A DNA stretch of 64,000 nucleotides from Rapana venosa. Its lineage: Eukaryota > Mollusca > Gastropoda > Neogastropoda > Muricidae. Below the pieces are notes generated by a model. The model saw nothing but the letters and a program-made list of their open reading frames with translations. It was not told where the DNA came from and made no database searches. The translations under genes were made by a program, and so were the position numbers. The stretch is taken from assembly GCA_028751875.1 (NCBI GenBank), contig CM054134.1:39680815-39744814 (forward strand). Direction: 5' to 3'. Positions 1,719 through 63,852 of the stretch are shown piece by piece; the stretch's first letter is position 1, and every line of letters starts with the position of its first letter.

Positions 1719-4700
1719 GTAATGTATTGAAAGAGTTGGGTTTTGATATGTTGACAGTATCATTTGTTATATCTCATTCAGTACAAACATTCAGGAAGTG
1801 TTCTGCTGTATAGCTTATTGTAAATATGTGTGTCATCTCCTTCATTTGTTTATTGGGATTCATATGTGGAGATGCATAGCATCCCTACCTGGAAATACTG
1901 CACTTGGAGTTCCAGCTTTTCTATCCCTCTCTTTGTTTCTTCCCTGTTCCTTCCATCACCTCCTTGGTCTGTTTTCTGCCTTCTTGGTCCATTCTCCTGC
2001 CTTTTTTCCAGAAAGACTTAAAAGATGACAGATCTCTCCCATGCTGAAGTCGGATGTGCTGGGCCTGACTTGTCAGGCTCTTAACGGCAGTGCAACACAT
2101 TTCCACTCATATAAGAGACAACAGTAGCTGCTGTCTGAGTGTTAGACGAAGTTCATTGGGATACTTTTCTATACTTTTTTTTAACTGCAAAAACTTGATG
2201 ACATGCAGCAGATTCATTAGTACATTTGTTTCATTTTCAATGGCGTTTTGCCAAACGTGTCTTTTAAAAAAAAAAAAAAAAAATTCAGTTGTGTGCATCT
2301 TTAATCTTTTGTAAAGAGCAGAATGGTGTGTGGGTGCAAACAGATCTAAATAAATGTCCATTATATTAATATAATTACTGTGTGTCTTGCACTAAGAACC
2401 ATTTGGAAAGCTCTCTCTCTCTCTCTCACTCTCTCTCTCTCTCTATATATATATATGTGTGTGTGGTGTGTGTGACCAAATATTACGAAAGGGCCGAAAA
2501 AATGGGCAGAATTAACTCCTGAAAGTCCTCTTTATTGAGGTTACTTACCTGAATGTAATGTACTTGAGTGGAAAGGAGAGAGAGATTGGCTTTTTAACTC
2601 TCTACTACCGTCGGCGGGTTGACCCGCCCTCTTACTACTTGGTCCGCGAAGCCGCGGGCGGGTGTGCCCGCTGAATACCTGGGGACACCTGGTGTCTCCC
2701 TTTGCGCTATTTATATACCATGGTCTCACACCCCTTATCGCTTTAGACATGCGCAGTGAGCTCCCAGATAGTGTAGCTGCCGCCATTTGCAATTTTTGCT
2801 TCAGTTGATCGATTTTGGTGCCGATTTTTTCGATTTTACAGCGATGTCATCGAGTAACAATTTTTGGAGGGAGCTGCATCAATATGGCGACTGCTTCAAC
2901 GAACTTTTTGGAGGATTTTCTGTGAAAATAATGGCAGAATCTGAACTTATGTGGACTGAAATGGACTTAGAAGCTGAACAGAGGATTCAAGAGTTGCAGA
3001 GTGGAATGGATGTGCTGTGTTTATTGGTGATTTGAGTGATGAAGATGACTATGACAGTGGTGTAAACAACGATCCTGCCGAGGGGGGCATATGACTGTGA
3101 CTGGCTTAAAATGAAAGAATTTCGTGAAAATTGTGGCTCCAGAAACTTGCAAAACGATGCTAGTGACTCGTGGGTAGTATGATGGGTTTTTTTCTTCTGT
3201 TTTTCACTGACGAAGTGCAAAATAAAATTGGAACAAACCCGTGACCTGATTTCAATGGCTGTCTGTTCGTCAGCCTGTATGCTTGTTTGTGAGTGTGATT
3301 GCATGTTATTCTAATATTATCTGAACATTATTACTTATTTTGCATGTTTGATTTTATTTCACTTCATCTTTACAATTCTTTACCTCTTGAAATAGTCATA
3401 TTTTAAAAATTATTGCATAACCACCGTAGCCAACAACAACCGCAACATCATTGCCATCAGCATTCCACAACAACAAGTCACACGAGTCAAACGAAGAAAT
3501 ATTGAATTTTTATTCACAACTTAACAAGTACAGAAAGTTTCATGTAGATCTGTCTTTATTTCGATTTTTTGTTATTTTTTAAAGTCAGTAGGTGTGAAAC
3601 TGAAAGACACTGCAGAAAATACTTGGTATACAGTGGTAAGTAAGAGAAACGGAACGCGGTAGTAGAAGAGTTAATTGTGTGTATCATGAAAGGTGGTTCA
3701 GGTTCTAGTCTTTGGGGTCAGATTATTAAATACAAATACTTTGTGTAGCATATCTTTAGTGAACATCAGTAAATTCATGGCAGTTGGAAAGATGTCCCGC
3801 CATTCTCATTGTAGCATTATGTTTTTGATTTCAGAGCTTCATGTACCAGATTGTGTCTGGTATCCTCTTCTGCCACAAGAGACGAGTACTGCATCGAGAT
3901 CTGAAGCCTCAAAATTTGCTGATTGACAACAAGGGGGGCATCAAGATTGCTGACTTTGGTCTTGCTCGGGCTTTTGGAATTCCAGTCAGAGTTTACACTC
4001 ATGAGGTTAGACTTGTGTACCTTTTATCAGATCCTTGTGCCATAACGTTTTGGCTGTAGTTTTATAAGTTGACCCACTTACACAACCATACATATAGTTC
4101 AGAAAAATCCTGTTTAGCATGGTTCCTGAAATATTCTGGGGCAATCTTGCAACGCACCATGGCAGATTCCAGGATGACATAGGTACTGCATGAATCACAC
4201 CTCTTTGAAGTTCCTTTTTAAAATAAAAAAAACCCACTGAAAACAAAAGTTGAAAAGTCTGAATTTTATACCGAGTCAGAGAGGTCTGCATAAACCCTGT
4301 ATATCTAATGGGGAAAATTTTTTCAGGCACATGCACACAATCCCACATATTTTGAATGACTTTACACTCAAGCTCACACAATTCTACCAGCACTTTTCGT
4401 TGTAACTGTTAGTCTTAGATGTCTTCATATGTAGGTTTCATTAAATTGGTTTTCATGTCAGGAGATTTTTTTTTTTTAATGCTTCAGCTTCAGGGGGCTG
4501 TACCCCCTAACCCCCTGCTTTTTTGGAGGGAGAGGGGTCACACCTCTCCCTTAAACTCAACTGATTTTTGACTCTCAGAGGCTGGTTGCTTTACTGTGTT
4601 ATTCCCGTAGTTTTGCATACTTGGCATACCTTAGCACTTAGGTGCTGGCTATGGTAACAACAAAAATCCAACAAAAATTTTAGCATTGGACATTTAAAAA

Positions 4701-18190: not shown

Positions 18191-18197
<7 letters not shown>

Positions 18198-18224
<27 letters not shown>

Positions 18225-25276: not shown

Positions 25277-25319
<43 letters not shown>

Positions 25320-40300: not shown

Positions 40301-43300
40301 ATCTGTTCTGTTGTGCTGCGCCCTGCTCTGAAACCTGCTTGTTCCTCAGCAATGATGGTCTCTGCTTGTGGCTTCAGTCTATTCAATATTATCTGCAGCA
40401 TGACCTTGCTTGGGTGGCATATGAGGCTGATTGTGTGGTAATTATGGCATTGTTGTAGATTTCCTTTCTTGGGGAGGGTGATGATAAGTGACTGTGTCCA
40501 TGGTGATGGCCATTTTCCTGTCTGCCAGATCTTGTTGCAGATTCTTAGTAGGGCGCTGATCATGGCTTCCCCTCCAGCTTGAACCAACTCAGCTGGAATG
40601 TTGTCAGCCCCTGCTGACTTCCCCTTTTTCAGCGATCTGACTGCTGTTTCCACTTCTTCTCGGAGGATAGGGTGACTGTCTGTGTCTTTGCTTGCAGGTA
40701 CATTAAGGACTTCTGGATCTCAGAGGGACACACCACTGGTTCTCACCTTTTCTTTGATGAAGTTCACCACCTCTTTGGCCAGTTTGAGGATCTCAGGGTG
40801 TGGATCAGAAGCCAGCAACATCAGGGCACGCCAAATGGCGTAGTAGATGTTGTTGAAAGGCAGGGAGATGCTGGACGATCCTGCCAGGGAGGTGCCTGAC
40901 GAACATCGTCGCAACCCAAACTGATGATTCAAACTGGCATTGGGGTCATTGGGGTCCAGGCTGGTCGTGGAGACAGATGTGTGGAATCCTGGGAACTGTC
41001 CTGAGCTAGATGCTGAAGACACATAATAGATATACACAGTTTAAGAAAGAAAATATTTGATTTTATTAACTGAAACTGAAAGAAAACTGCCAAGTTCTGA
41101 ATATGGAAATTTTGTTGCAAACATTTAACAATTTAACACACAGTCAACATAAAAAAATAATTTCCACCCTGTCTAAGGTCAATCTCACTAACTGTCATTG
41201 TTAGATTAAAAAAATAAATTATATCATATTTCCAGCCCCACCAGCCACAAAGACCACACCTGGGCTGTCACCTCCTTCAGTACCCAAGTTCAAACTGAAC
41301 AGACATGGTTTGTATTAATTACTTCAAATTCCAATCACTGTCAACCTGAAAGAAAACAACAACACACATTGAATGACACAAAAATGGAACTGTTCTATTC
41401 CTTAAGGCAAATAAAACAGGCCATGTTGAGTGCACCAGCTATTCCTCTAAGTTGTGTAAATGTATAACTGATCTGACATACAGTGCCTTTATCTCTTTCA
41501 CCATTAGGTAAGGTTACACTTCTTGTTAATTACACATATGATAATTATGTGATGAACCATAACAAATATAATATATAATTTCATAAACATGCTCTCTCTC
41601 TCTCTCTCTTTTTCTGCAGTCACCATCATTTGAAGAGCAATACCTACACATCTAAGATATGACACAGCAAATTGATGCAAACCTCCCTTTCACAATATAA
41701 AAACCCAGAGACCACAATTAGACTTTAGGATTTCTTTACATAGATAAAAAAGATAAAAACTCTGCTAAACACAGAAAAATTGGGGGAACTGATAAAAAAT
41801 ACATACACACATGTATACCAAAAAGTTGAATACAATCAATGGGAACAAATCTCCCCACAAATATAAAATGCCATGAGCTTTTCTATGCATTGTATAGTAA
41901 TTCAGGAAAAATATCAGAACAAAAAAATCTTCTTATAAGTATGTTACCACTCTAGCCTTATGATATTGGGAATGTCTTTGTTTCCATTAGTACAAGAGAA
42001 AAATGGGACATGAATGTGATCAACTGAAAATGTCAGAAAGGTTCAAATCTCTCAAACACAAGGTCATTCCAAAGCAAAATTTTGCAAACTAAAAAATAGC
42101 AACCCTCACCCCAAAATCACAGTTGAACTCAAAGAGGGACCCAAAAAAAGAAAAATCATTGAGGAGGCATGCATCACTCACAGAGGGAGCATGCTCTTAG
42201 TATGGAACTGATATTGCAATCCATCCTTCAGCTTTCAATTTAAACATTATTCATGGCAAGCAAACTCACTTCAAAATATAAAGAATATGTTGCACAAGAC
42301 AAACATTTACAGACTGTGCCATGCATGGGAGACTTGCATAGGTTATACTGAATGAGTGAGCAAGACTTGTTTGCAGAACTTCATGATGAATTTTTCCATG
42401 TAGAATTTGGACAGTTTTCCTCAGATAAAGTATATTGCCAAAATATAGAAGTGGGTTTTTCTTTTCAATGTCCATGGTGAGTGACAATTCACCAATGATG
42501 AAAGATTTTTCCTTCTACAGAATATTTTTGTTAATGTTGTTGTGGCTTTTTTGGTTTTAATGCATGGTTCCAACAGAGAATTGCTTTAAATTTGCCCAAA
42601 TGAAACACAAGTATCTCTGGGCAGAAATTCAACCAAATGAATGGGGACTGGGGAAGGATTGGAGAAGGATGACTGTATGGTTAGGAGTCACATAGTCACC
42701 AATTTTCTGTGAAAGACAAACATGCATTTCCTTTCCAAAGGAAGGGATAGGGTGTGGGTGGGTGCCATGAAATGTGCACCATCTCAGTATTTTCGCACTT
42801 AATTATAAAATACATGAAACACCTTTTTCTCTTTTAAAAAAAATCCAGTTTCCTTCTCATCTCTTTGGTTTCAACATTCTAGTTTTACCAAGGTACCATC
42901 ACTGCAAGCCAAATATTCCACACAGTCTACTCTGTAAAGAATTTACAAACTGCATCACCCTGTGCTGAAAGAAAGTTCTATATTCTGCCCACTTTGACTG
43001 CACCAGCAACCGTTTCAAATTTCTGAGGACTTTTGGCAAACCTTGAACAAAGGAATTCTACGCCTCAGTGGAAATTTCTAAGCCTAAGAAAGTATTCTCC
43101 AACTAAAAGCCCAGCCAATCAATCTTGCCTTTCTAAGTTGAAACTGGAAGGAAGCCTGGAAACAAAATTAATATACAAACATATTCACTCCAACCAATAA
43201 ACCTTAGATAAAACCCTAGCATTATTTACAATTTTAAAAAACCACCCCAACTTGAGATGGAAAAAAACAAGTCATGAACATAAACAGTGACACAGGTGAT

Positions 43301-46300
43301 ACTTACAACATACGAATTTAAAGGCATATGATCATCAGCCTAACAAAGTTGTGTACATCTTCGCAATCTCAAACAATTTGCACTATTTTTCAAGGCTTCT
43401 GAAGATACTCATACAGCCAAAATTGCCAGTGAGAGATTCACATCCTGACTTCTTATGACATCAATGAACACTTACTGAGATCTCACTGATTTACCTTCTT
43501 CTGTTTACCACACATATTCATGGCCAATCCTTTTTAAACACAATAAAACTTCATTCTGCTCCTAAGCCTCCCTATAAAATTATACACTTTTGGTGGCTTT
43601 TTTTTTTAAAAACAGAAAATACTGGGGAGGGAGGGTTGGGGGGGGGGGGGGGGTCAGTTTTATGCCCCAATATCATAATCAAAAAGCTACCAATTTTGAT
43701 CAAGACCAAATCCAACATAATCAAGGCCAAATATTTGCACTACAAATTACGAAATTTCAGCACATAAAATACAAATTACTAAACATTTACAACTGTTTAT
43801 ACATACAGAAGTCTTTTTTTCTCCCCAGAATACATTACCTTAGAAAAAAAAAAGAAGGAGGAAAAGAAAGAGAGATATATATAGAAATAATGTTGGTCAA
43901 ATGCTACAAAACTAGCCTAAAGTATGATCTACACAAAGGACCGTGATGACAGACTGTTTAAAAAATGTTAGATATTGTAAATATCATTTAGATAGGTTCT
44001 TTCCATTCTTTGTTTATTTCCCCTTCTTCCCATGTTTTGTTTATTGCCTATCCACTGACCAATAACATTCAAGAAATAGTTTCACAAGTTAAAATGTGAT
44101 GCAATACTTCTCCATTTTTCACTGACTTAAACAAAATAATCATGCTGATCTGAATGCAAATGGCCACAAAGGCTACTTTATACTGAACAAAAGGCTTTTC
44201 TGTAAACTGCCTATATGTGACACTCCACCACCAAATGAATTGCTTTGCACCTGATCCCACTTTTCTGCTAGGAACCATTTTAAGCAGGTTGCTAATTTTG
44301 AGATTTTGATTGATTGTGAAAGTATGGCCATTACTCTACCTTGTACTGAAATATCAAGGCATAGCTTGTGTCCTTTTGCTTGAAAACATGTTTTAACCTA
44401 TTAACTGCAAGAGTGCAAGTGCACCTATATGCCAGGGAATTAAATTATCAAGTACCACTTGCTATGTTCATGTCCCTCTTACTCAGAAATTACTGAATGA
44501 ATAATCCTGATAGTCTGCCCAATGACAGTATATATATATCGTAGATTGCTCTGAGGCAAACTCAAATTAGTTAGCATGATATTTCACTACAAAATATATT
44601 TAAAATGTAAAAATTTGACCAAAAATACACTTTTTCATCACCACTGTCATTCTGAGTACCCCCTATCTCAATATCATCAAACATAAGTCCAGGCAAAATC
44701 TCAGTTTTGTTTTTTTAAATGCACTTTCTCCTGAATCATACACGATCATTTTCATCATCCAGGTTATCTAAAGTTTTATTTGCCACTTTTTCAGCTGTGT
44801 AAAGTTATTGATACCTTCAACAAGAAGTGTCAGCCATTTTGAACAAGAACATAATACTGCATACTAACACAAAATACGAGCTAAACAACAATCGTTTTTG
44901 CCACGGTTTTTGCAGTTGGATGTTGCCAAGCAACAGGAGAGTGATCTATAATTTTGGAGTTATTTCCCTTTAACTGTAGACAAAGAAGCTGGCTTGTTTA
45001 CTTTGGTTCGAAACCCCTGACATTTTCCGGGTTGTAGGCACATAGAGTGTACAATTAGCCCTGGAAAATTTCTGGGGTGGGGCAGTCTAGTGGCATTCTG
45101 ATCACCTGTTACCATGCAAAACTTGTCCATTTCTCATTTTGTCACCTCCTGCAGTCTAGCAATGTGTTCTTCCTTATCTTAAATAGAATAAGTTCATAAC
45201 ATTTCAGACAAAGCAACTTAAGTCAATGGTCACCTTTCATAACAATAATTTACAAAACAGTTTGTAACAAGAAAAATGTTCATCTGACAATGATGCTGGT
45301 TTTTGAATGTCCCCCCCCCCCCCCCCCCCCCCCCCCCCATCCCCCAAGTGTGGATGCAAGATTCCCCTCCCCACCCCAAAAAAAATGTAGAGATGCTTCT
45401 GGCATATGTTGAGATAATTCTTTGCAGAGGACAATGCAATGCTGTGACTTACTTTTGATTCTCTTACAAACTTAAATTTTTTTTTTTTAAACCACCCCCC
45501 CCAAAAAAAAAAAAACCCAACAACCCCAAACCCAACAACAAGCCAATGCCAAAACTAGTTGTTCTTAAATTCCTCCATTGTAAATTTTATTACCTAATTT
45601 CCCCCCCCCCCCCCCCCCCACCCACCCCCCCAAAAAAAAGGAGCAAAAACCAGCGCATGCGCACACACACACAGCCAGTTTAAAAAAGCTACATGGTTTC
45701 ATTCAATCCCCCAAAGCTCAGAAAGCTAAGGACTTGATTTCCAAGAAGATTATTGTCATAGAGTGCCCTTCACTTCAGTGAGGGCATTAGTGTGTCATCT
45801 CCTGTGTGTATTGGATCAGAACAGGCCCTAGTCTAGTGCAGGGCCTCTTCTACTTTGTGGCCAGGAAGAACAGCTCTGCAAGAGTGGCAGAAAAACCCTG
45901 GGAGAGGCTGTGTGAGGTGGAACTTAGTGTGTTACCGGTAGCCATGAAATATCATGGCCGGTGAAGCGCCAGTACAAAAGAAACAAAAAATCATAAGTAC
46001 ACTTATGCATGTACTGTCTGCTCTCCATTGAATAGAAAGTAGTGCATGCTGTGTATATAAACATAAATGCAATGGACTATGTGTCAGGTCATGTCAAGAA
46101 CATTAAGGCTTAGCCAACTGCATACTGACTGAGGTAAGATACTGTCAGCTGATAATGAAACGTATGCCTTTTGTTTTGTTGTTTTTGGTTACAAGACTCG
46201 AACATTAAAAAAACAACAACAACAAAGCTCTAACAAAAGTAATCCCTTGGCACTCAATGACGATGGTGACTGAGACAAGACTAAAGGACATTTTCCAGTG

Positions 46301-49300: not shown

Positions 49301-52300
49301 GCCGTCTGATGAGATTGATCATACGACCTTGCTAAAAGGTCTGAAAGCATCCATCCTGAACTTCCTCTTTGCCAAATGCTCAGATAGCAAATATTGCCGT
49401 CTGATGAGATTGAAAATGCTTTGCACTGACGTTAAGCTCTTGACCAGTCAGGTCCAGCATTTCTGACTTTGGCATAGGACAGAACTATTATAAGTCTTTC
49501 TGGAAAAGAGGCAGATGAATGGACGAAGAAGGCTGAAAAAAGACAAGAAGGAGATGACAGGAAGAAAAGGAACAAGGCAGAAACAAAGAGACGGACAGAA
49601 AATAGGGAACTCCCTAGCACAGAATTTCCACACAGTGGGTATGCTATTTATACTGACAGGCCCCTGGCACTCACTGGGAAAAAACATTCCGGAAAAAATA
49701 ATCAGCCATTATGTTTACACAACTATAATCGTGATTTAAAAACAACAACAACCCAAACAACTGATATAATTTGAAAACAAATAGTGAACTAAATCCCACC
49801 GAGGTAATTCAAATCCATTCGATAAACCTTTCAAATAAAGACAAAATGAAAAAAGTGTACAAACAATAGATGTACACACTATACAGAAAGCAAGGAACAA
49901 GCAAACAAAACTGAACCAAAATGCACAAATCAGGCACAGTCCAAAGTAACCAAATAAAAAAAAAATTAAAGAAAATATTTCGAAACCTTGCAAATCATTC
50001 AATAAAACTAAACTAAAAAAGAAAAAAAAAACTACAAATAAAAAAGCTAGCTAAAACAAAAGGTAAATAAAACAAAAATTCAACCTCTGCTTCACTAAAA
50101 GAAGGAAAATAACAAACAAGCAAAAAGACAAAATCAATAAATAAAGCTACAAATAACACATAAATCAGTCAAACAGATTGGAAAAAAATTCAAAAACAAA
50201 AACAACCAACATAAATGTACAAACAAAACATGCAAAAAAAAGAAAACAAAAGTATATAAAACTTTTTTTTCTCCAAATACAAAACACAAATTCAACAAAA
50301 GGAATGAGAGAAAATAAAAACAAAAAAGAAAACAAAACTGAAACAAACAACCAAACCAAACCAAAAAGACAGAAGCATTCAAGTTTCCAATTTGCACCCA
50401 ATACTCTGTACAAGGCAGTGGCATCATCAGACCAGTGCACAGTCACCACTATAGCACTGCATCCACATTCACTACACAGGCTACATGGCTATCAGTGGTA
50501 CTGGTAGCTACACCGCTAGCAGCAGACAGCAAAATGTGAGATGAAAAGACAGCCACAGGCTGCCCTAATGGTTATACCTATCCCAGGCTGCGATACAATT
50601 GACCACCCACCAGCCGCTTCTGCCACGATGACCGGGGACGAGCGGTCCTTGGCTTTCTCTTCATCGCTGATGCGGGCGGCCACCACCATGAACTGCTGTT
50701 CAAACTTCTCCACCAGGCCCGCCAAGGCCACCACCAGCTCCTGTCACACCATTCAAAGTGCAGGAAAGACGTACTGTAAGACTTTATCTATTCTTTTATA
50801 TCGAGGATAATGGAATAAGCACTCATGTGCTTTTTTACATCCAGTCCCCGTGTGTATGCGGTTTTGTAAATTTTGTCACCTGTACCACCGGCACACAATG
50901 GCCTACTCTTTCGAAAAGCGGAACAGGATTTAACGTGTGCGCAAGATGTTCTGCATGCGTTCGCACACGGGGCATCGGTTTATAGTCTCATCCTGAAATA
51001 TTGTACACACAAGACTGATATACATAATGAACTGTAGGATTTATATATACTGCACTGCAAAGTTCACTGATTATATCCAACATCCCTAATCTACACTAAA
51101 AATGAAAATCTCACTGGCAGCACCCAGCTGTGAATCAAACAAAACAAAACCAAAACAACTCACACACACCCTTACCTCAGTCAAGAGAAGGGTTACTGGA
51201 CAGTCATTGTTAACACCAAACAAACAAAAAAGGTTTTTTTCTGCAGTCTTGTGACCATTCTCACCTCTTGACAACTCCATTTCTGAGTCTAGCCTTATCA
51301 TGATTGTTATCGTCCTGCTCCATCAAAGATAAGAATAGAATAGTACAGCAGTAAGAAACTCTTCAGTTTATTAAAGACACTAGAAACACTTTACCTTACG
51401 GACAAGATGACTTCCGTCAGAAGCACACTGAACCAGAGTCATGCCCACTCCCAGCTCAATGTTGTTGGCATGGTCAGTCTGCTCTGTCCCATTGAAGATG
51501 AAAGTGCCCAGTGCAAACACAGCTGAAGCCCTGACCTGCACACAGTAATAGGTAACATTCTGTTATTTTGTTGTCCTGTAAAGCATTACAGTCAAACCAG
51601 ATACCAAGAAATTGAAGTAACTCTCTCTAGAAAGACATATCTTCAAACTATGATTCTGCTGATTTTCTTTGTAATTTCCTGTCTGCAGGTATATTTGTCT
51701 CCCATAAAAGGTTTTCTGCAGCATTTTATCAGGATCAATTTTCTTGTAGTTGTGGGGTACTTTTCTGTACACCAAATGTGCTGCACATGGATCTTTACGG
51801 ACTAATCCAAGAAACTAGTAGATGAGTGTGTTACCTCTAGACCTCCATATTTAAAGAGTCCTCACTTACCTTAAAGGAACAATGATACACAGACTAACAT
51901 GGAAATCACATGTTCCATTCATTCATGCTGTGATAATCTCACACAGTCTGTTACAGGTGCTGCATGGCATTCTATTATTATGATAAGCTTTGATACAATG
52001 TAACAGGATGATCTAAAAAAATGAAAATGTGTTTGTTGAGATCCCCCAAAATGCTAATAATGACAATTTTAACCCTTTCCCATTTTTACCCACCATAGCC
52101 CGCCGGGGACGGGATAGCTCAGTGGTCGGAGTACTCGCTTTCCCCCATACAAGTTAAGCAGCGTCGAGCGTGGTTACCAGTTGGATGGGTGACCGTTTGC
52201 GCGCCTTGGCTTCAGTACATTTCCCCCAGTTCACCCAGCTGTAAATGGGTACCTGCCCTCTTTAGGGTCAGGGAAGGTAAAGCAGCGAGGGAGAGGAGAT

Positions 52301-55244
52301 GGGCGCCGCCCTCAATATGCTGGCCCTAGAGAAGTGAGGTCTCTGACGCCTCGCTCCCCTACGACCTTATAGGTTATGGGACTCCTTTACCTTCCTTTAC
52401 CTAGCCCGTCGCTGCCCGCTTGCCCGCATATATTTATACCGGCCTCAGCCTGCCAGATGTCATTTCAGCCTAGTGGGGAATTTCCATCACGCACTAAGCT
52501 CTACCTAGTACACGCACACCATGAATGAACATTCCACTGAGGTCAGCATAAACTAAGGAAGGAATGGGTACCAAAATCAGTGCTACACAGCCTCCCATTC
52601 TCAAGAAATTGGCCAGTGACTGACTTTGTTTTTCCCACGCTTTCTTGTAGCTAAAAATGGCAGCAAAGATTGAGGGTACAATTTGGGAGGAATACACTGA
52701 TGTGGAAATTGAAGCTATTTTTGCTCAAGTGGAACAGTTTAAAAGAGAATAAAATGTTGAATCCGATGGTGAAGTAGATGTAGAAGAAAGAGATGAAATA
52801 GGAGAAGGTAGTGAGTCGGAAAGTGATGCTGAGGATAACATTCCGTTGGCTTCATAGTAGACGACATGGCGCGGCGCACAAGTGCCTTGCACAGTGCAAG
52901 ACTTCACGCTGCCGACTGGGCCGGCACAAACTCTCCCACTGAATGCCAAGCCCTTAGATTACTTTGTTTTGTTTGTGCCCCAACATTTTTTTCAAACTGC
53001 AGCGCATGAAACTAACAATTATGCCAGGCAAAAGATCGCTGTGAAAGGCTTAGTCATAGACCATTATGGACAGAAACAACACCTGAGGAAATTAGGGCTT
53101 ACCTGTCAGTTTTGATCATGATGGGGATCAAGCCTTTGCCAAGGCTTCATCTCTACTGGTAGACTGATTTGAGATTTTCTGAGTCATGGATCAGTAATAT
53201 TATGACGAAAACCAGATTTCTCAAAATTAATCAGTATTTTCACCTGAGAAACACGCCAACACACCTGGACGTGACACTGGGCTGTGACACCTGCACTGTG
53301 ACAGCCATGTAACTGGCTATTGGTGAAGGACACACTAGTGTTTTCGTAAATAGTAGGCGTGAGCATATATTTGTAAATAATGTATATATGCGCATTAGTC
53401 AACGTTGTTTTCAATATTTTTGAATACTTTCCACTCAGAAAATGTAGACTTGGTGACAGTAATTTTGTGACAGGTGTGAATGTTCGATTGGATTACCATG
53501 ACGGTGGATGCGATGGAGGACACATTCTGGCAGGACCAAACTTTTTTTTTTTAAATCACATATGTATATTACGCATGTTAGGGGTAGTTGTAGATTAACA
53601 GCATGATGTCACTGCAATTTTACCGTTATTTGGTGACAAAGAGGGGACAGCAGCACGACACATGTAGGTAGGACACACATCTTGGGATGCAGAAAAAAGT
53701 ATGACATCATATGAATAATTTGGCCAAATATGACTGCTCTGCGAACAGTAACTGTACAGCATTCTGTGTACTTGAGGTACCTTATTTTCTTAAAGAAACT
53801 GCATGAATTTTCGAATACTACAGAGAGTTTCTCTGTAAGATATGCGAATGGTAAAGGGTTAAAGAGACAGATAGCTACAAGTAGATGCCAAGGATGTTAG
53901 ATCTGTGTGAGAGAGAGCGAGAATGAGAGAGTGTGTGTGGGGTGGGCTGGGGTGTGTGGGGTGTATGTTATTATTAACACTTGCCTGTAACCTACATACA
54001 TTTCTATATTTGAGGTGATTAAGTATTCACATTCATTTAAGAAATACAATGATAAATCCATGGCCAGCAAAACTGCTAGTGAACAAACATTTCTGACCTC
54101 CGGTGAAGGGTCCTTGAGAAGCTTGTACACTTTCTCATGAGCACTGTCCCGAACCCCACACCAGCGAGCTTTGTTATAGATGCTCCAAATCTGAAATGAT
54201 AAATCAAATCATAAGAATATCCCTATCAACATGAAAATATAAAAGTTTTTAACTCATCAATGTCAACATTCTTTCTGTAATGTAAAATACAAACTCAATA
54301 AATCAAGTCCTTTGCTGATCACCCTTTTTTCTCATTGGCATTTCAAGTACAAAATAGAAAGCTATATCCAGTTATTTTCCTTCCTTGGACAGAGCTTTGA
54401 GGATGGTCAATGGTGTGATTTTGAATATGCAACCGGTTGCCCAACATTATGGTAGACTTCAGAGATGAGGTCTAACCATGACACCCGTGTACGTTTTTTA
54501 AAAATAAAATTTTGTCATCCGTTTCTACCAGCACAAAATAGCTCTTCTCTTCCGAAAGGCGGAATGGGTTTTCAATGTACTACGGTCTCATCCAAAGGAC
54601 TTTCCAGGGAAGGGAATCTGTACAGATATTTATTCCAAGGGACAAATCCCCTCAAACAGGCCTCTGATTGTGGCTCGAACCTGGGCCATTTCATCACAAA
54701 CTAAGCGCTCTAACCACCCCCTTATTATATAAATAAAATAACCTTTTTTTTATTTTTAAAAATAGTATATTTGGTAGTGATAGTGTGTATTAGAAGGTGG
54801 GGAATGAGTGGGTGGTTCTTTGGGGGGGAAGGGGGGTGTGCACACATGTCTGTATGAAAAACATGATAGCATCAATTCTATTTTTTGTGTTATAGTCACA
54901 TTTCATTACTTTTCCTTGATGAGTAAACATATCATTAACAATTCATCAATTATAAAACAAACAGCAATAACAAAAAAAGAAAAATTCTAGTTCTGAAACA
55001 TAAGAACAAATTTTCTGCTCAAACACAAATGACTACACTTTAAGCTTCGCCAGGAAAACAACACACATGAATCAGTAACAGCATTTCCATAAATGCTATA
55101 TCAGTCCCATTTTCTCTTCTGTTGACTCAAAAATGAGATCAGATGAAGTTTTAAGCTCACAGAACAATCATATCAGATTAAGCAGGAAGAATTTGTCCTC
55201 TTTCAAATATCTCTTTCTCTCCCCCCCCTTTTTTAAATAACATC

Positions 55245-55304
<60 letters not shown>

Positions 55305-61300: not shown

Positions 61301-63852
61301 CCATCACCAAAATATACATTCAAGTCCATTTTCCCTCCACCAACATTAGTTACACAGACAGACTATCTGTCTTTCTTTTCTCCCTGAAGGATTGAAGATG
61401 AAACCTTTAAAATAATGTAAAAAATGAGATGGCAATTACGCTTGTAAACTCATAAACAAATCAGCACTATTAAATGGATAGCAAAAATCATTTCTATACA
61501 ATTTGTCACAAAAGAGCCTTCAAAATACAATAAACAATCCACAATGATATTCAACCTATCATATAACTATTAACATGATTCAACCATCTACTTCAAAATT
61601 TTGCTGGCAAAAGATTTATTGACTAAAAACCATGTTGTCTTTCATTTACTTATTTCAGGCACATGTGCATGTGCATGGGCACGTGCACACACACGCACAC
61701 ACACACACACTCACTCACTCTCACTCACTCACACTCTCACCTCTGGGCAGTGTGTTCCAAGCAATAGTGTCTGTGATGGCAGTGAAAATCCAGTTGAGTT
61801 CTCCCAGCATTGTCCGTCGGTCATTTAGCTGTCCAGGGATTCTGCACAACATTGCATGATTGACATGAAGATCAAAAAACAATGCTTAACATGCTTCAAC
61901 AAAACTGTGGTCTTCTAGATGGCACATGACTCAAAACTGAATAACCAGGTATTTGAGCTAATGGAAAGAGAGAAAGAGAGAGAGTATGTGTGTGCATGCG
62001 CATGTGTGTGCGCGCACATGTGTTGTATGCATGTACGGGCATACATACATTTTATATTGAAAGTCAGCTTCATTGACTTCAGTCACCTTACTTCCTAAAG
62101 GTTCAAGAACAAAAACCCCATCACTTTTAAAAAATAATTCCAAGTGACAAAGACACTAAGATTTCACTTACTACATTGTAAATTAACTCTTCTACTACCG
62201 TCGGCGGGTTGACCCGCCCTCTTACTACTTGATCCGCGAAGCCGCGGCCGGGTTTGCCTGCCGGATACCTGGGGACACCCTTTGCGCTATTTATATACCA
62301 TGGTCTCACACCCCTTATCGCTTTAGACATGCGCAGTGAGCTCCCAGATAGTGTAGCTGCCGCCATTTGCAATTTTCGCTTCAGTTGATCGATTTTTGTG
62401 CCGATTTTTTTTAATTTTACGGCGATGTCATCGAGTAACGATTTTTGGAGGGAGCTGCATCAATATGGTGACTGCTTCAACGAACTTTTTGGAGGATTTT
62501 CTTTGAAAATAATGGCAGAATCTGAACTTATGTGGACTGAAATGGACTTAGAAGCTGCACAGAGGATTCAAGAGTTGCAGAGTGGAATCGATGTGCTGTG
62601 TTTATTGGCGATTCAAGTGATGAAGATGACTATGACAGTGGTGTAAACAATGATCCTGCCGAGGGGGGCATATGACTGTGACTGGCTTAAAATGAAAGAA
62701 TTTCGTGAAAATTGTGGCTCCAGAAACTTGCAAAATGATGCTAGTGACTCGTGGGTAGTATGATGGGTTTTTTTCTCAGTTTTTCACTGATGAAGTGCAA
62801 AATAAAATTGGAACAAACCGTGACCTGATTTCAATGGCTGTTTGTTCGTCAGCCTGTATGCTTGTTTGTGAGTGTGATTGCATGTTATTCTAATATTATC
62901 TGAACATTATTACTTATTTTGCATGTTTGATTTTATTTTACTTCATCTTTACAATTCTTTACCTCTTGAAATAGTCATATTTTTTAAATTATTGCATAAC
63001 CACCGTAGCCAACAACAACCGCAACATCATCGCCATCAGCATTCCACAACAACAAGTCACACAAGAGTCAAATGAAGAAATATTGGATTTTTATTCACAA
63101 TTTAACAAGTACAGAAAGTTTCATGTAGATCTGTCTTTATTTCGATTTTTTATTATTTTTTAAAGTCAGTAGGTGTGAAACTGAAGGACACTGCAGAAAA
63201 TACTTGGTATACAGTGGTAAGTAAGAGAAATGGAACGCGGTAGTAGAAGAGTTAAAGATCTTATAAATCCAGAAAGAAGAAAATGAAACACAACCCACCC
63301 TCCCAAAAAAAACCCTGAAAACAGGTCTGTATATATCAGAGGAGGACGTCTTCAACTTACTTGTCCACCATGTCCAAGGTAAGACCAGTGATCAACTTGC
63401 CAGAACTCTGCAAAACATACCTGCAAAAAGAAAAGCACGAATGAAAAGGGCAGCTCTTTTACAAAATCTATAAAACACATCAACAGCATGAACAGGGACA
63501 CATACACACATGCGCACACACATGCATGCACACATGCACGTACACATACACTAACACAAGCACACACGCACACACACACACACACGCATGCACTCACTCA
63601 TTCACACATACACACTCACTCACACATACACCCACACTCACACACATATACACACACGCGCAAATACATGCAGTGAAGTACCCACCAGCGCAGCGCCATG
63701 CGGATGGGTGTAGTAAGGCAAGAGGTGAAGAGGTCAGCGGGCAGCTCAGGGTTCTGAGGGAGGAGCTCATTGTTGCCACAGGCACCCAACAAAATCGTGT
63801 TCTTGGAACTGGACGCCCCTTCCAGGGTGGATGTACTGCCTGTCATGCTCCT
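23281..63852 (-). CDS. RPTOR: Raptor (regulatory-associated protein of mTOR), partial, last 27 exons
   Basis: Twenty-seven exons join in phase to give about 1082 residues ending in TGA (23283-23281). Raptor is the mTORC1 scaffold: it binds TOR, recruits TOS-motif substrates such as S6K and 4E-BP, and docks on Rag GTPases at the lysosome. Exons from 63852 to 50611 (residues 1-483 of this part) hold the end of the N-terminal conserved region and the HEAT/armadillo array, with [40 protein letters not shown] and [19 protein letters not shown]. Exons 47075-36220 encode a Ser-rich linker. Exons 32626-23281 encode the WD40 propeller. Vertebrate Raptor is about 1335 residues, so the N-terminal caspase-like part (~250 residues) lies beyond the window. 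Introns carry elements A to E except C1 and B1. One acceptor (near 23878) is uncertain. Confidence 0.96.
23765..23878 (-). CDS. RPTOR: RPTOR exon 26, WD40 (acceptor uncertain)
   Basis: It encodes [20 protein letters not shown], then [18 protein letters not shown], close to vertebrate Raptor. The acceptor gagtcag at 23879 is the only one that keeps phase 0 after exon 25, but it omits about five to seven residues expected before SLNVYN. The intron side reads GSGTMSQ in the same frame, which resembles vertebrate CGSVNQ. An alternative acceptor at 23895 would shift phase relative to exon 25. The donor is GTCAGT. Confidence 0.82.
24742..24856 (-). CDS. RPTOR: RPTOR exon 25, WD40
   Basis: It encodes [20 protein letters not shown], then [18 protein letters not shown]. 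Acceptor gtgtgtacag, donor GTAAGG, ending in phase 0. Confidence 0.92.
25281..25316 (+). repeat. (GT)n microsatellite, 18 units
   Basis: A perfect GT dinucleotide run in an RPTOR intron. Confidence 0.97.
25590..25690 (-). repeat. SINE-2 H-type tail fragment
   Basis: The minus strand contains 'ccttggctagagctctgagg' and 'tgcgtatgcgactg', matching the H tail at 16290 and 55305. It lies in an RPTOR intron. Confidence 0.65.
25885..25971 (-). CDS. RPTOR: RPTOR exon 24, WD40
   Basis: It completes the split Cys and encodes [20 protein letters not shown], then GEGKIVSA. Vertebrate Raptor has ECRVMTYREHTAWVVKASLQ. The preceding intron holds elements D1 and A1. Confidence 0.94.
26174..28003 (+). mobile_element. 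TTAA-flanked piggyBac-type element, family D copy 1, interrupted by A1
   Basis: The ends are TTAACCACTAGACTGCC (left) and, as reverse complement, TTAACCTCTTAACTGCC (right). This is a diverged terminal inverted repeat that ends in ACTGCC, as in many piggyBac ends. Without the nested element A1 it is about 720 bp. A frame after the insert reads [20 protein letters not shown], an acidic stretch like a transposase N-terminus. The inverted copy D2 (44393-45093) confirms both arms. Confidence 0.82.
26489..27602 (+). mobile_element. TTAA-flanked piggyBac-type element, family A copy 1
   Basis: The element is bounded by TTAA duplications. Inside are CCCTAGTGGCGC and GCGCTACTAGGG, inverted with one mismatch; CCCTAG is the start of classical piggyBac ends. 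Two subterminal 20-bp palindromes lie at 26507-26526 (TTCCCGGAATATTCCGGGAA) and 26551-26570. A frame near 26962-27207 contains [15 protein letters not shown], resembling the ETNRYA region of piggyBac transposases, but it is short and broken, so the element is non-autonomous. It is about 99% identical to A2 and is inserted in element D1. Confidence 0.9.
28241..28371 (-). CDS. RPTOR: RPTOR exon 23, WD40
   Basis: It encodes [20 protein letters not shown], then [18 protein letters not shown]. It ends two bases into a Cys codon. The acceptor and first codons lie inside an 81-bp tandem duplication, so a second copy of this splice site stands 81 bp upstream in the intron. Confidence 0.94.
28361..28522 (-). 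repeat. 81-bp tandem duplication spanning an RPTOR splice acceptor
   Basis: Two units start at 28361 and 28442 and run from 'gtaggaatgtcctgtc' to 'gccattcattacca', nearly identical. The unit includes the acceptor and the first codons of RPTOR exon 23. Spliced at the upstream copy, the frame reaches an in-frame TGA within the duplicate. Confidence 0.95.
29266..29372 (-). CDS. RPTOR: RPTOR exon 22, WD40
   Basis: It encodes [20 protein letters not shown], then [16 protein letters not shown]. Acceptor gactgtgcag, donor GTCTGT. A 58-bp tandem repeat begins about 20 bp upstream of this acceptor in transcript order. Confidence 0.94.
29391..29750 (+). repeat. 58-bp tandem repeat, about six units
   Basis: Units begin 'atccttcagtatcattatgc' at 29391, 29449, 29507 and 29565, then with 62-63-bp spacing near 29628 and 29690. 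The last units carry a 'gagat' insertion and decay. It lies in the RPTOR intron next to the exon 22 acceptor. Confidence 0.92.
30361..30465 (-). CDS. RPTOR: RPTOR exon 21, WD40
   Basis: It encodes [20 protein letters not shown], then [15 protein letters not shown]. Acceptor tatcatttcag, donor GTGAGT. Confidence 0.94.
30799..30923 (-). CDS. RPTOR: RPTOR exon 20, WD40
   Basis: It encodes [20 protein letters not shown], then [25 protein letters not shown] is a WD40 d-strand. Acceptor tattttcag, donor GTAGGC. Confidence 0.93.
31790..31930 (+). repeat. Imperfect ~67-bp direct repeat
   Basis: The sequences 'cagacaaaataattgttgg' and 'cagacaacataattgtgg' are each followed by 'taatacac' and 'gaatg', and later by 'ttcacgaaggca' or 'ttcatgaaggca'. 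It lies in an RPTOR intron. Confidence 0.6.
31975..32089 (-). CDS. RPTOR: RPTOR exon 19, WD40 blade 1
   Basis: It encodes [20 protein letters not shown], then [17 protein letters not shown]. Acceptor tttatacag, donor GTGAAA. The motif LDDQIF.NRN marks the start of the propeller. Confidence 0.93.
32416..32626 (-). CDS. RPTOR: RPTOR exon 18, pre-propeller
   Basis: It encodes an acidic start (GDEADEDD), then [20 protein letters not shown] and [17 protein letters not shown]. It is the counterpart of vertebrate DWSARYFAQPVM and RFLRNSRVRRQA, just before the WD40 propeller. Confidence 0.93.
33459..33500 (+). repeat. (GA)n microsatellite
   Basis: A GA tract with early GCGA interruptions, in an RPTOR intron. 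Confidence 0.9.
33650..33725 (+). repeat. tRNA-like SINE head
   Basis: A box A-like 'tggctcagtggttagca' is followed 40 bases later by a box B-like 'ggtttgaatcc'. There is no matching acceptor stem or clear anticodon arm. A real tRNA gene is unlikely. Confidence 0.5.
36220..36385 (-). CDS. RPTOR: RPTOR exon 17, linker
   Basis: It encodes [14 protein letters not shown] and, near its end, [18 protein letters not shown], which matches vertebrate HQFPRTRKMFDKGPEQ. Acceptor ctatacag, donor GTATGG. Confidence 0.92.
36924..37033 (-). CDS. RPTOR: RPTOR exon 16, linker
   Basis: It encodes [20 protein letters not shown], then [16 protein letters not shown]. It is weakly conserved, but is supported by acceptor gtgtggtcag, donor GTCAGT, and phases (0 in, 2 out) that are needed to join exons 15 and 17 without a stop. 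Confidence 0.8.
37270..37590 (-). repeat. Repeat family F, copy 3
   Basis: The minus strand runs from 'gggcctgacagtatagatag' and 'gcatccccacc' to 'gggcctgacttatcaggtgc' and 'gtttgacgataaag'. It is the inverted counterpart of copies 1 and 2. Confidence 0.8.
38028..38555 (-). pseudogene. Retrotransposon RT C-terminal reading frame
   Basis: This frame of 175 codons carries [20 protein letters not shown], then [20 protein letters not shown] and [18 protein letters not shown], the usual region after the RT domain in endonuclease/RT proteins. It is separated from the RT core frame only by the TAG at 38604-38606; the frame is otherwise continuous. Confidence 0.85.
38604..39117 (-). pseudogene. Retrotransposon RT core reading frame
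   Basis: It holds the RT palm: [35 protein letters not shown], the FADD catalytic box and the YLGAIVSD thumb start. It is fragmentary because of the A2 insertion upstream and a nonsense codon downstream. Confidence 0.87.
39118..40229 (+). mobile_element. TTAA-flanked piggyBac-type element, family A copy 2
   Basis: About 1.1 kb between TTAA duplications and near-identical to A1, with roughly ten differences including a 3-bp deletion. It has the same CCCTAGTGGCGC / GCGCTACTAGGG ends and twin subterminal palindromes. It is inserted in a retrotransposon RT frame, and its excision with one TTAA would leave [14 protein letters not shown] uninterrupted. Confidence 0.93.
40230..40726 (-). pseudogene. 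Retrotransposon RT N-terminal fragment
   Basis: It reads [14 protein letters not shown] at the truncated start, then [33 protein letters not shown] and [15 protein letters not shown], ending VFIDF at the A2 junction. Upstream endonuclease sequence is absent; RPTOR intron sequence begins about 20 bases before the exon 15 donor. Confidence 0.85.
40747..41012 (-). CDS. RPTOR: RPTOR exon 15, linker and conserved helix
   Basis: A long exon: [20 protein letters not shown], a Ser/Gly-rich stretch, then [20 protein letters not shown] and [13 protein letters not shown]. The last part matches vertebrate NSVYTQIWRVLLHLAADPYP. Donor GTGAGA. A truncated retrotransposon begins about 20 bases into the following intron. 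Confidence 0.92.
44393..45093 (-). mobile_element. TTAA-type piggyBac-like element, family D copy 2 (empty of A)
   Basis: An inverted copy of D1 without the nested A element: left end TTAACCTATTAACTGC, right end GGGGCAGTCTAGTGG. The right TTAA is lost (catt). Its reverse complement reads 'ctttacacagctgaaaaagt' where D1 carries TTAA plus A1. That makes it the unoccupied site. Confidence 0.85.
45311..45348 (+). repeat. Poly-C tract of 38 bases
   Basis: An uninterrupted C homopolymer (G on the RPTOR transcript strand) in an RPTOR intron. Its length is likely to be inexact in the assembly. Confidence 0.9.
47001..47075 (-). CDS. RPTOR: RPTOR exon 14, serine-rich linker
   Basis: It encodes [20 protein letters not shown], then SLVS. 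Acceptor catctttcag, donor GTAAGA. The Arg/Ser-rich stretch corresponds to the phosphorylated linker of vertebrate Raptor, although individual sites cannot be matched. Flanking phases fit on both sides. Confidence 0.85.
47557..47750 (+). repeat. CA/CG-rich purine-pyrimidine minisatellite
   Basis: Imperfect units such as 'cgcacgcgcgaacacgcacg' pass into 'cacacacacatacgcgcgaa' and then (CA)n. It is almost wholly alternating pyrimidine-purine. Apparent Cys/Val or His/Thr frames here are repeat artefacts. Confidence 0.92.
48145..48355 (+). mobile_element. tRNA-like SINE-1, copy 2 (internally deleted)
   Basis: The body matches 52200-52400: 'cagttcacccagctgtaaat', 'gggaaggtaaagcaacgagg', 'cctcgctcccctattacc' and the tail 'ataggttatgggacaccttt'. 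The head is reduced to 'ggggatgagatagtgg' joined directly to 'tttcagtaca', so the tRNA/5S part is deleted. Confidence 0.82.
48595..48790 (+). repeat. SINE-like repeat with (AAT)n start
   Basis: Starts with (ATA)n, then 'tttatatagcgctgaatctt', 'aatcaaagcgctcagattt' and 'ctccgtgaaattcgggctgc', ending in a GC-rich inverted segment ('ctctccccggggagag') and poly-T. The 'tttatatagcgc' unit resembles widespread mollusc repeats (from general knowledge, not checked). Confidence 0.6.
49221..49410 (+). repeat. Tandem duplication of ~95 bp
   Basis: The segment 'tgatcatac-accttgctaaa' through 'gccgtctgatgagat' occurs twice, starting at 49221 and 49316, with near-perfect identity. It overlaps the start of family F copy 4. 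Confidence 0.9.
49255..49675 (-). repeat. Repeat family F, copy 4
   Basis: An inverted copy containing 'gggcctgtca', 'tctttgtttctgccttg', 'ttcttcctgtcat' and 'tctttccagaaagactta'-like landmarks on the minus strand. Its far end is lengthened by the local tandem duplication. Confidence 0.78.
50611..50740 (-). CDS. RPTOR: RPTOR exon 13, last HEAT repeat
   Basis: It encodes [20 protein letters not shown], then [17 protein letters not shown]. It ends one base into an Asp codon that the next exon completes (G|AC), which selects the donor GTGGGT. Confidence 0.93.
50790..50995 (-). mobile_element. tRNA-derived SINE-2, tail type G, head missing
   Basis: The plus strand reads 'tcgaggataatggaataagc', 'gtccccgtgtgtatgcgg', 'acacaatggcctactctttc' and 'cggtttatagtctcatcc', matching 20040-20290. 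It is truncated before the tRNA-like head. Confidence 0.75.
51395..51535 (-). CDS. RPTOR: RPTOR exon 12
   Basis: A 47-codon phase-0 exon: [20 protein letters not shown], then a HEAT helix ending SDGSHLVRK. The preceding intron carries element E with its nested SINE. Confidence 0.94.
52106..52401 (+). mobile_element. tRNA/5S-like SINE-1, copy 3, full head
   Basis: The head 'gggatagctcagtggtcgg' resembles a tRNA box A. It is followed by 'aagttaagcagcgtcgagcg' and 'ggttaccagttggatgggtg', close to the internal region of 5S rRNA. The body and the tail 'ataggttatgggactccttt' then follow. Target duplications flank it: 'tagcccgccg' (52096-52105) and 'tagcccgtcg' (52402-52411). It is inserted in element E. 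Confidence 0.85.
52658..53115 (+). pseudogene. piggyBac transposase N-terminal remnant
   Basis: A broken reading frame: [20 protein letters not shown], a nonsense codon, an acidic region ending DNIPLAS, another stop, then in the next frame the PLDYF...[10 protein letters not shown] segment. The acidic N-terminus followed by PLDYF and ETN.YA is the order in piggyBac transposases. The DDD catalytic core is not present. Confidence 0.85.
54098..54190 (-). CDS. RPTOR: RPTOR exon 11
   Basis: A 31-codon phase-0 exon: [20 protein letters not shown], then [11 protein letters not shown]. The [13 protein letters not shown] block is invariant in Raptor. Acceptor atcatttcag, donor GTCAGA. Confidence 0.95.
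54385..54720 (-). mobile_element. tRNA-derived SINE-2, tail type H
   Basis: The minus strand starts 'ggggtggttagagcgcttag', has the box B-like 'ggttcgagcc', then the core 'ctattttgtgctggtagaaa' and 'cggatgac', and an H tail ending 'ctcaaagctctgtcc'. The head and core match the G-tailed copies, while the tail differs. Confidence 0.75.
55247..55303 (+). repeat. (TG)n microsatellite, ~28 units
   Basis: A perfect TG run (CA on the RPTOR strand), directly followed by an H-type SINE tail fragment. Confidence 0.97.
55305..55390 (+). repeat. SINE-2 H-type tail fragment
   Basis: Reads 'ccttagcgagagttctgagg', 'ttcaccaattttgagat' and 'catttaggcagctgtatttc' as in the H tail at 16290-16400. Confidence 0.65.
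55583..55681 (-). CDS. RPTOR: RPTOR exon 10
   Basis: A 33-codon phase-0 exon: [20 protein letters not shown], then [13 protein letters not shown]. Acceptor gtgaatgcag, donor GTGGGT. Confidence 0.94.
55798..55905 (+). repeat. Tandem duplication of ~60 bp
   Basis: Two units containing 'tttgtgaaacttttcacaaa' and 'gcactaaaaaatcc' start near 55798 and 55858. The sequence ttgtgaaa-cttttcacaa is itself a near-perfect hairpin. It lies in an RPTOR intron. Confidence 0.9.
56737..56802 (-). CDS. RPTOR: RPTOR exon 9
   Basis: A short 22-codon phase-0 exon: [20 protein letters not shown], then GQ. Acceptor gtatatttcag, donor GTAAGT. The matching vertebrate segment begins AEHRTMTAFIL. Confidence 0.94.
57133..57210 (-). 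CDS. RPTOR: RPTOR exon 8
   Basis: A 26-codon phase-0 exon: [20 protein letters not shown], then DHQCMS. The intron between it and exon 7 carries element C copy 2 (57653-59125). Confidence 0.94.
57653..59125 (-). mobile_element. TTAA-flanked piggyBac-type element, family C copy 2
   Basis: TTAA at both ends, with TTAACCCTCTTGT inverted as ACAAGAGGGTTAA at the far end. It is an inverted near-identical copy of C1 over about 1.4 kb, including the palindrome CTGCCCACGTGGGCAG at 59023-59038. A poly-G run and GT repeat lengthen it near 58370. It lies in an RPTOR intron. Confidence 0.87.
59280..59335 (+). repeat. Poly-C / poly-T / poly-G tract
   Basis: Consecutive runs of C, T and G; the C and G runs can pair with each other. 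Low complexity in an RPTOR intron. Confidence 0.85.
59523..59633 (-). CDS. RPTOR: RPTOR exon 7
   Basis: A 37-codon phase-0 exon: [20 protein letters not shown], then [17 protein letters not shown]. Acceptor attctttcag, donor GTGAGT. Confidence 0.95.
59932..60015 (-). CDS. RPTOR: RPTOR exon 6
   Basis: A 28-codon exon, phase 0 at both ends: [20 protein letters not shown], then LGPWAVNL. Acceptor ctgattag, donor GTGAGT. The segment is a conserved armadillo helix pair. Confidence 0.95.
60219..60393 (-). CDS. RPTOR: RPTOR exon 5
   Basis: Acceptor tgtgcacag, donor GTAAGG. It encodes [15 protein letters not shown], a variable Asp/Glu/Asn segment, [15 protein letters not shown] and QQLPIVLQ, ending in phase 0. 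Confidence 0.95.
60605..60660 (-). repeat. SINE-2 G-type tail fragment
   Basis: Plus strand 'tgaggatagtggaataagca' and 'ttaacatccagtctcaatg', matching the tail of 50790-50995. A TG/TA-rich tract follows to 60740. Confidence 0.65.
60950..61094 (-). CDS. RPTOR: RPTOR exon 4
   Basis: Acceptor tgtgttgacag, donor GTAAGT. It encodes [20 protein letters not shown], then [16 protein letters not shown] and a proline-rich turn ending PTYQHPMW. Confidence 0.95.
61680..61740 (+). repeat. CA and TCAC microsatellite at an RPTOR donor
   Basis: (CA)n passing into (TCAC)n, ending directly at the donor of RPTOR exon 3. On the transcript, the intron begins GTGAGAGTGTGAGTGAGTGA, so the microsatellite forms the donor-proximal intron. 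Confidence 0.85.
61741..61841 (-). CDS. RPTOR: RPTOR exon 3
   Basis: Acceptor gttgtgcag, donor GTGAGA. It encodes [20 protein letters not shown], then [13 protein letters not shown]. This block is almost identical to vertebrate Raptor. The intron before it carries element B copy 2. Confidence 0.95.
62183..63255 (+). mobile_element. TTAA-flanked piggyBac-type element, family B copy 2
   Basis: The ends TTAACTCTTCTACTACCG and CGGTAGTAGAAGAGTTAA are perfect 18-bp inverted repeats. It is about 95% or more identical to B1, with the same hairpin GGCGGGT-tg-ACCCGCC and the same broken acidic frame. It lies in the intron between RPTOR exons 2 and 3. Confidence 0.9.
63361..63420 (-). CDS. RPTOR: RPTOR exon 2
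   Basis: Acceptor ctttttgcag, donor GTAAGT. It encodes [19 protein letters not shown] and starts by completing the split Trp codon, which confirms the donor chosen for the previous exon. Confidence 0.92.
63500..63662 (+). repeat. (CA)n-rich tract with CATG and TCAC variants
   Basis: A CA-dominated imperfect repeat in the short intron between the first two RPTOR exons of the window. Confidence 0.92.
63686..63852 (-). CDS. RPTOR: RPTOR exon 1 of window
   Basis: Acceptor ttatctcag, donor GTGGGT. It encodes [20 protein letters not shown] after a less conserved Ser/Thr-rich start ([16 protein letters not shown]), and ends two bases into a Trp codon. The motif [14 protein letters not shown] is nearly invariant in Raptor and marks the end of the caspase-like conserved region. 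Confidence 0.94.

What the first reader, a model, noticed from the sequence alone, without database searches (positions are those of the whole stretch)
2594..63255. Five unrelated TTAA-flanked non-autonomous piggyBac-like families in one 64-kb window
Families A to E differ in internal sequence, but all end in TTAA. A starts CCCTAG, C CCCTCTTGT, D CC-CT--ACTGCC, E CCCTTT and B CTCTTCTACTACCG. Most keep a broken acidic transposase start (for example DEDDYDSG in B, NPDSDENDR in D, SESESDAED in E), and two keep an E(S/T)N-YA motif. Eight or nine insertions in 64 kb suggests strong, repeated piggyBac activity in this lineage. The shared structure, a transposase N-terminus kept while the catalytic core is deleted, is unusual for short MITEs.
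Basis: partly seen in the sequence, partly recalled or inferred. Interest (0 to 1): 0.75.

Follow-up and report, generated by a model that had tools for sequence, protein, structure and literature searches.

The report
Deleted piggyBac transposons crowding snail window
This stretch of what is probably snail DNA holds nine copies of five kinds of crippled piggyBac jumping genes that kept their ends but lost the enzyme core; that kind of element is well known, but two of the young kinds, with distantly related ancestors, also tend to sit near each other on the other chromosomes looked at.

Summary
Confirmed, with additions. The window (Rapana venosa, inferred from assembly size) holds nine TTAA-ended insertions of five families, 15.9% of 64 kb. 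Held copies end in TTAA: A 30/30, B 30/30 (one each is the window's), C 10/10 ends, D 10/10 ends, E 7/8 right ends. Two window insertions have readable empty sites; removing A2 with one TTAA restores a 335-aa reverse-transcriptase frame. The genome gives 121 PF13843 matches. For A, B, D and E a transposase-bearing locus shares both flanks with the short element (65-90% identity) and has 1-2 kb more in the middle: the catalytic core. These four are internal-deletion derivatives; C is piggyBac-like by its ends and a weak N-terminal match, partner not found. Partner transposases are only 28-31% identical, so the deletions arose in parallel. The kept N-terminus is not a kept protein in A and B, whose consensus frames are broken, and the architecture is not unusual. 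C joins them on C1+C2 but not clearly on C3/C4. Known kind; possible shared insertion islands deserve follow-up.

The parts
2594..3674 (+). B1, non-autonomous piggyBac family B, TTAA both ends
   Evidence: 95.4% to B2
62183..63255 (+). B2, family B, TTAA and perfect 14-base inverted ends CTCTTCTACTACCG
   Evidence: 42 genome matches listed, 40 of 463 candidates scored
12366..13779 (+). C1, family C, TTAA both ends
   Evidence: 90.6% to C2
57653..59125 (-). C2, family C, TTAA CCCTCTTGT ends
   Evidence: 822 left ends genome-wide
26174..28003 (+). D1, family D, interrupted by A1
44393..45097 (-). D2, family D, not interrupted by A; one end CATT instead of TTAA
26489..27602 (+). A1, family A, inserted at a TTAA of D1; D2 shows the unoccupied site (one base of the four differs)
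39118..40229 (+). A2, family A, inserted in a reverse-transcriptase frame; removal with one TTAA restores 335 aa
52069..53862 (+). E1, family E; keeps the start of DDE_Tnp_1_7 (profile 29-96 of 349, E 4.8e-12, frame from 52071; 2-30 in frame from 52069 at E 0.17)
52105..52402 (+). SINE-like insertion inside E1 (approximate edges, AGCCCG on both sides)
38028..40719 (-). non-LTR-type reverse transcriptase (RVT_1) that A2 interrupts

Best explanation
Families A, B, D and E are internal-deletion derivatives of four separate piggyBac lineages in this genome. Each kept about 470-930 bases at the 5' side (inverted end, leader, transposase start) and about 235-590 at the 3' side and lost the catalytic core (shown by alignment). 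They were spread by transposase supplied in trans, by cut-and-paste at TTAA sites (TTAA sites shown; trans mobilisation inferred). C is most likely a fifth such family. The kept N-terminal DNA travels as passenger or end-adjacent cis sequence, not as a protein (shown for A and B only). The waves differ in age: sampled A and B copies lie 0.1-0.8% and 0.4-2.7% from consensus, C and E relatives mostly 4-8% from the window copy, D 11-13%.
For: TTAA at both ends: A 30/30 and B 30/30 held copies, one each being the window's (B: 29 by script, one shifted 2 bases by the alignment); C 10/10 and D 10/10 ends in 5 copies each, E 7/8 right ends, the next-ranked copies after the window's own. Empty sites for A1 and A2. 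Same-family nesting listed for A, B, C; A (L046) and B (L012) at the same TTAA of B copies. Partners: A with L007, 1-794 and 866-1114 of 1114 at 65% and 73%, element 2649 bp with TTAA and matching ends; B with C12:49374200-49377440, 1-574 and 666-1082 of 1082 at 75% and 79%; D with L006, 71% and 69%, the two stretches meeting at 470/471; E with C21:17878420-17881640, 90% on both sides, 585-aa frame without stops. L007 transposase matches piggyBat 9c0f at 3.1e-77 and PF13843 at 3.3e-84. Broken N-terminal frames: A consensus stops after 20 aa from the shared ATG, 6 of 6 indels against L007 not multiples of 3; B stops after 73 aa, 3 of 4 indels not multiples of 3.
Against: Partners found for A, B and D are cousins (65-79%), not immediate parents. 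Each partner copy that I held has a flaw: L007 has a stop between the shared ATG and the rest of the frame, B's is frame-broken near the third Asp, L006 has Ala at the first catalytic Asp and no TTAA, E's lacks the first ~13 bases of its left end; one search lists other copies with stop-free frames above 600 aa. No partner for C among 22 transposase loci, 14 of them held only as ~1-kb 5' pieces. Forward frames of A, B, C and D hit no transposase model in Pfam. One of 8 E right ends lacks TTAA. No activity assay.
Confidence: 0.93

Rival explanations
1. The transposase N-terminus is kept because a short acidic N-terminal protein made by the short elements does something, such as blocking the full transposase.
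For: All five families keep N-terminal coding DNA; C's case rests on a weak match.
Against: In the consensus of 30 copies each, A's frame stops after 20 aa and B's after 73 aa, and 9 of 10 indels against the partners are not multiples of 3. Consensus frames of C, D and E were not made.
Confidence: 0.04
2. The kept 5' stretch is needed in cis for efficient transposition, so only deletions that spare it amplified.
For: The four resolved families keep far more than the short inverted ends on both sides; A has two perfect palindromes TCCCGGAATATTCCGGGA at 20-37 and 64-81 that the partner shares. [quoted passage not shown] paper not read).
Against: Kept lengths vary, and coding-part identity to partners is not above the leader's (A 0.67 leader, 0.57-0.69 by codon position; B 0.83 leader, 0.62-0.83; for D and E the script did not find the start codon and those rows were not used). 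Simple passenger retention fits as well.
Confidence: 0.4
3. The crowding is local hopping or segmental duplication, not shared target regions.
For: A-A close pairs are 17 against 1.5 expected, and DNA transposons hop locally (stated in PMC5333637, passages). B-C pairs on C3+C4 are 0 against 0.56 expected, so not every family pair co-clusters.
Against: A and B, different families, co-cluster (14 against 1.1 on C1+C2, 5 against 0.4 on C3), which local hopping of one family does not give; among 1.5-kb flanks of 58 loci five pairs were over 90% alike over more than 500 bases, and the loci in those pairs all have a family copy in a flank. The A-B clusters themselves were not read end to end.
Confidence: 0.3

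Closest known systems
mPok1/mPok2, MITEs derived from the piggyBac element Pokey in Daphnia (PMC3849761, passages seen)
   Same: Deletion derivatives of autonomous piggyBac elements, TTAA targets, large for MITEs (about 750 bp), some copies inserted at the TTAA beside another copy.
   Different: mPok share 160 bp (5') and 350 bp (3') with Pokey and have a centre without observed similarity; here longer stretches with transposase N-terminal DNA are kept, from four or five lineages in one genome.
CMITE families of Acropora with piggyBac-like AmiPB elements (PMC2872659, abstract and one results section read)
   Same: TTAA duplications, CC[C/T]T ends, several piggyBac lineages in one host genome.
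   Different: The internal region of CMITEs is conserved between families and of unknown origin; here the interiors of A, B, D and E are largely pieces of each partner.
piggyBat transposase (PDB 9c0f) and PGBD4-like proteins of molluscs
   Same: L007 transposase aligns with 9c0f over 524 residues, with Asp opposite Asp at the three motifs (catalytic role recalled and from PMC8151067 passages on T. ni piggyBac); nearest protein listed is 67% identical, PGBD4-like of Littorina saxatilis.
   Different: The window's elements lack this core.

Membership tests
piggyBac superfamily | TTAA target duplication with single TTAA in the empty site | tested here: met
   exceptions: one D2 end, one of eight E right ends
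piggyBac superfamily | Inverted ends starting CC[C/T]T (definition as in PMC2872659) | tested here: inconclusive
   A, C2 and E (CCCT) meet it; C1's left end reads CCAT; D has CCAC on one end and CCTC or CCTA on the other; B starts CTCT
piggyBac superfamily | Partner with same ends encoding DDE_Tnp_1_7 (PF13843) | tested here: met
   A, B, D, E; C: none found among 22 loci, so not met yet for C
piggyBac superfamily | Catalytic Asp triad in partner | tested here: inconclusive
   three motifs present in A partner L007 and in E partner; B partner has two in one frame and GGVD in another frame; D partner L006 has Ala at the first
piggyBac superfamily | C-terminal cysteine-rich finger in partner | tested here: inconclusive
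   PF13842 E 0.0049 in L007, 17.8 bits against a cut-off of 24; cysteine pattern visible in the translation
piggyBac superfamily | Footprint-free excision and mobilisation by partner transposase | not testable with these tools
   needs an assay
MITE | Short, inverted ends, no coding capacity, many copies | tested here: inconclusive
   0.7-1.5 kb without inserts, longer than classical MITEs; A and B consensus frames broken; 304-1236 left ends for A, B, C. 'Deletion derivative' fits better.

The most novel reading that the evidence does not exclude
This genome has insertion islands: neighbourhoods of some tens of kilobases where short elements of piggyBac lineages whose transposases are only about 30% identical land again and again, so target choice is set by a shared host chromatin feature rather than by each transposase. 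The present window, which holds a Raptor exon, would be one such island.
Probability: 0.35. Interest if true: 0.55.

Novelty: new member of a known kind. Interest (0 to 1): 0.35.

Why it matters
It shows four piggyBac lineages giving rise to the same kind of deletion derivative in one genome, with near-identical copies that suggest recent spread, and transposase genes with stop-free frames still present. If the islands hold, the genome is a natural record of where piggyBac elements inserted and stayed in a germ line, to set beside insertion maps made in cultured cells such as the mouse ES cell study PMC5333637.

Tried and rejected
Rejected: 'not piggyBac' for A, B, D, E (partners); 'N-terminus conserved as a protein' for A and B; L079 as an intact element (left end cut); L006 as an active donor (first Asp changed). 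Pfam on stop-masked forward frames of A, B, C, D gave only weak unrelated hits, below their curated cut-offs and taken as chance, the lowest Herpes_UL31 at 0.0069 on D2; reverse frames were not scanned. C against the 22 transposase loci gave no blastn match over 60 bases and mostly simple-repeat tblastx matches; C peptide pieces picked by eye and stitched matched the E-type N-terminus at 30%, E 2e-4 with composition correction off, weak. tRNA and Rfam scans of the window were empty. Left-end counts for D (asked) and E (asked once) never came back. Literature: in the rows listed by searches (capped lists, open-licence papers only) I saw no report of these families in Rapana; in PMC10432487 the word piggyBac has 0 occurrences. 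The related dog whelk paper PMC12506669 lists 4689 PiggyBac elements, 0.27% of the genome (passage).

Limits: A and B divergence comes from the 30 best-ranked of 40 scored copies out of 1583 and 463 candidates, so it leans young. Close-pair counts use exact 22-mer left ends on C1 and C2 (A 47+25, B 19+8, C 38+20); pairs inside one cluster are counted separately, and by my own count A-B pairs fall in six clusters. Window copies were included there for A and C (without them A-C is 7, A-A 16). C3 is not a blind replicate: I saw its close A-B sites by eye in the list before testing, and its A list may be cut at 90.7 Mb. The nulls do not model gene, AT or TTAA density.

Full report
Where it is. The window is G000:C1:39680815-39744814 of a 2.276-Gb assembly. 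Contig C1 is 129,259,876 bases; the Rapana venosa paper reports 2.30 Gb and 35 chromosomes of 35.91 to 129.26 Mb (PMC10432487, passages). I infer Rapana venosa, a marine snail. A Raptor exon lies within 59433-59804 on the minus strand.

The observation. Self-comparison and end inspection give nine insertions of five families: A twice (98.7% alike), B twice (95.4%), C twice (90.6%), D twice (85-87%) and E once. They occupy 10,180 of 64,000 bases without the SINE-like insert. 17 of 18 ends have TTAA. A TTAA-pair scan gives 7 hits, 4 of them these elements, against 0-2 for five other AT 4-mers.

Insertion at TTAA. A1 interrupts D1, and D2 is the version without it. A2 interrupts a reverse-transcriptase frame; taking A2 and one TTAA out gives an unbroken 335-aa frame. 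TTAA stands at both ends in 30 of 30 held A copies and 30 of 30 held B copies, one each being the window's own (one B end shifted two bases by the alignment), at 10 of 10 C ends and 10 of 10 D ends in the five next-ranked copies each, and at 7 of 8 E right ends. Same-family nesting appears in the match lists of A, B and C.

Partners. The genome gives 121 DDE_Tnp_1_7 matches, best E 4.4e-95, at least 20 of them with a stop-free open frame above 500 aa; 116 of 1178 candidates were scored. I held 22 such loci, 8 with 1.5-kb flanks and 14 first as ~1-kb 5' pieces, two of which I then extended. A shares 1-794 and 866-1114 with L007 (65%, 73%), a 2649-bp element with TTAA and near-identical ends. 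B shares 1-574 and 666-1082 with a locus on C12 (75%, 79%). D shares both sides with L006, the two stretches meeting at position 470/471. E shares both sides with a locus on C21 at 90%, with TGACA common to both sides of the deletion. In these four cases what is missing is the middle of the transposase gene. The partner transposases are 28 to 31% identical to one another, so four lineages lost the same part independently. C has the EMNRYA motif, an acidic stretch and a weak match of stitched pieces to the E-type N-terminus; no partner was found.

Flaws in the partners are told too: L007 has a stop after the shared start codon, the B partner is frame-broken near the third Asp, L006 has Ala at the first catalytic Asp and no TTAA, and the E partner lacks its first bases. 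One search lists other copies with longer open frames, for example 619 aa at C21:46051351, the locus of L070, whose 5' part is 96% like L007.

The kept N-terminus. In the consensus of 30 copies, A stops 20 codons after the shared start and 6 of 6 indels against L007 break the frame; B stops after 73 codons and 3 of 4 indels break it. These two do not carry a kept protein. The simplest reading is that deletion left what deletion leaves; a cis need for end-adjacent DNA is possible. Large piggyBac deletion derivatives are known (mPok, about 750 bp, PMC3849761, passages), so the architecture is not novel.

Age. Sampled A copies are 0.09-0.81% from consensus and B copies 0.37-2.71%; these are top-ranked copies and lean young. 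Scored C, E and D matches are mostly 93-96%, 92-95% and 87-89% identical to the window copy, 40 scored of 1862, 946 and 3054 candidates. So activity came in several waves.

Crowding. Left-end counts are 1236 (A), 304 (B) and 822 (C), about 0.066 per 64 kb together, yet this window holds six copies of A, B and C; the window was picked for them, so this alone proves little. On C1 and C2, exact-end A-B pairs within 64 kb number 14 against 1.13 for uniform placement (0 of 2000 simulations) and 0.92 when B is shifted by 0.3-3 Mb (0 of 2000); within 5 kb 5 against 0.10. A-A is 17 against 1.47. A-C is 9 against 2.39 uniform and 2.36 shifted (17 of 2000), B-C 5 against 0.90 and 0.92 (12 of 2000), and C-C 3 against 0.92, within reach of chance (136 of 2000). 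On C3, A-B pairs are 5 against 0.42 (1 of 5000), or 4 of 11 B sites with an A site nearby against 0.39 (1 of 5000); I had seen these sites by eye before testing, so this is no blind replicate. A-C on C3 is 3 against 0.74 (312 of 5000) and B-C on C3+C4 is 0 against 0.56. So the A-B link is strong and C's part in it is doubtful. The nulls ignore gene, AT and TTAA density. In mouse ES cells piggyBac prefers highly expressed genes and shows hotspots (PMC5333637, passages), which is a plausible parallel, not a test.

Verdict. The finding is real and correctly read as piggyBac, of a known kind. The novel part is the possible islands shared by A and B.

Noticed in passing
G000 C1, C2, C3: Exact-end copies of A and B lie near each other far more often than uniform placement gives; C joins on C1+C2 but not clearly on C3/C4.
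   Followed up: partly
10202-10355, 48163-48351, 52207-52393: A SINE-like repeat family, one copy inside E1; related sequence also in L006 and L076.
   Followed up: partly
1876-2149, 11323-11618, 37266-37573, 49361-49667: A ~300-bp repeat family of four copies (72-78% alike), matches not ending in TTAA.
   Followed up: no
59433-59804: Exon of Raptor (mTORC1 subunit) on the minus strand.
   Followed up: partly
29390-29707: 58-bp tandem array, 5.3 copies.
   Followed up: no
A2 39118-40229, element positions 20-37 and 64-81: Two perfect 18-base palindromes near the 5' end of family A, shared with the partner L007.
   Followed up: partly
L001-L004: Four transposase loci 94-97% alike over long stretches; the scan of the held 4.1 kb found no TTAA inverted ends around the gene.
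   Followed up: no
G000:C32:22348486-22349793: A 73%-identical relative of family A directly beside an A copy.
   Followed up: no
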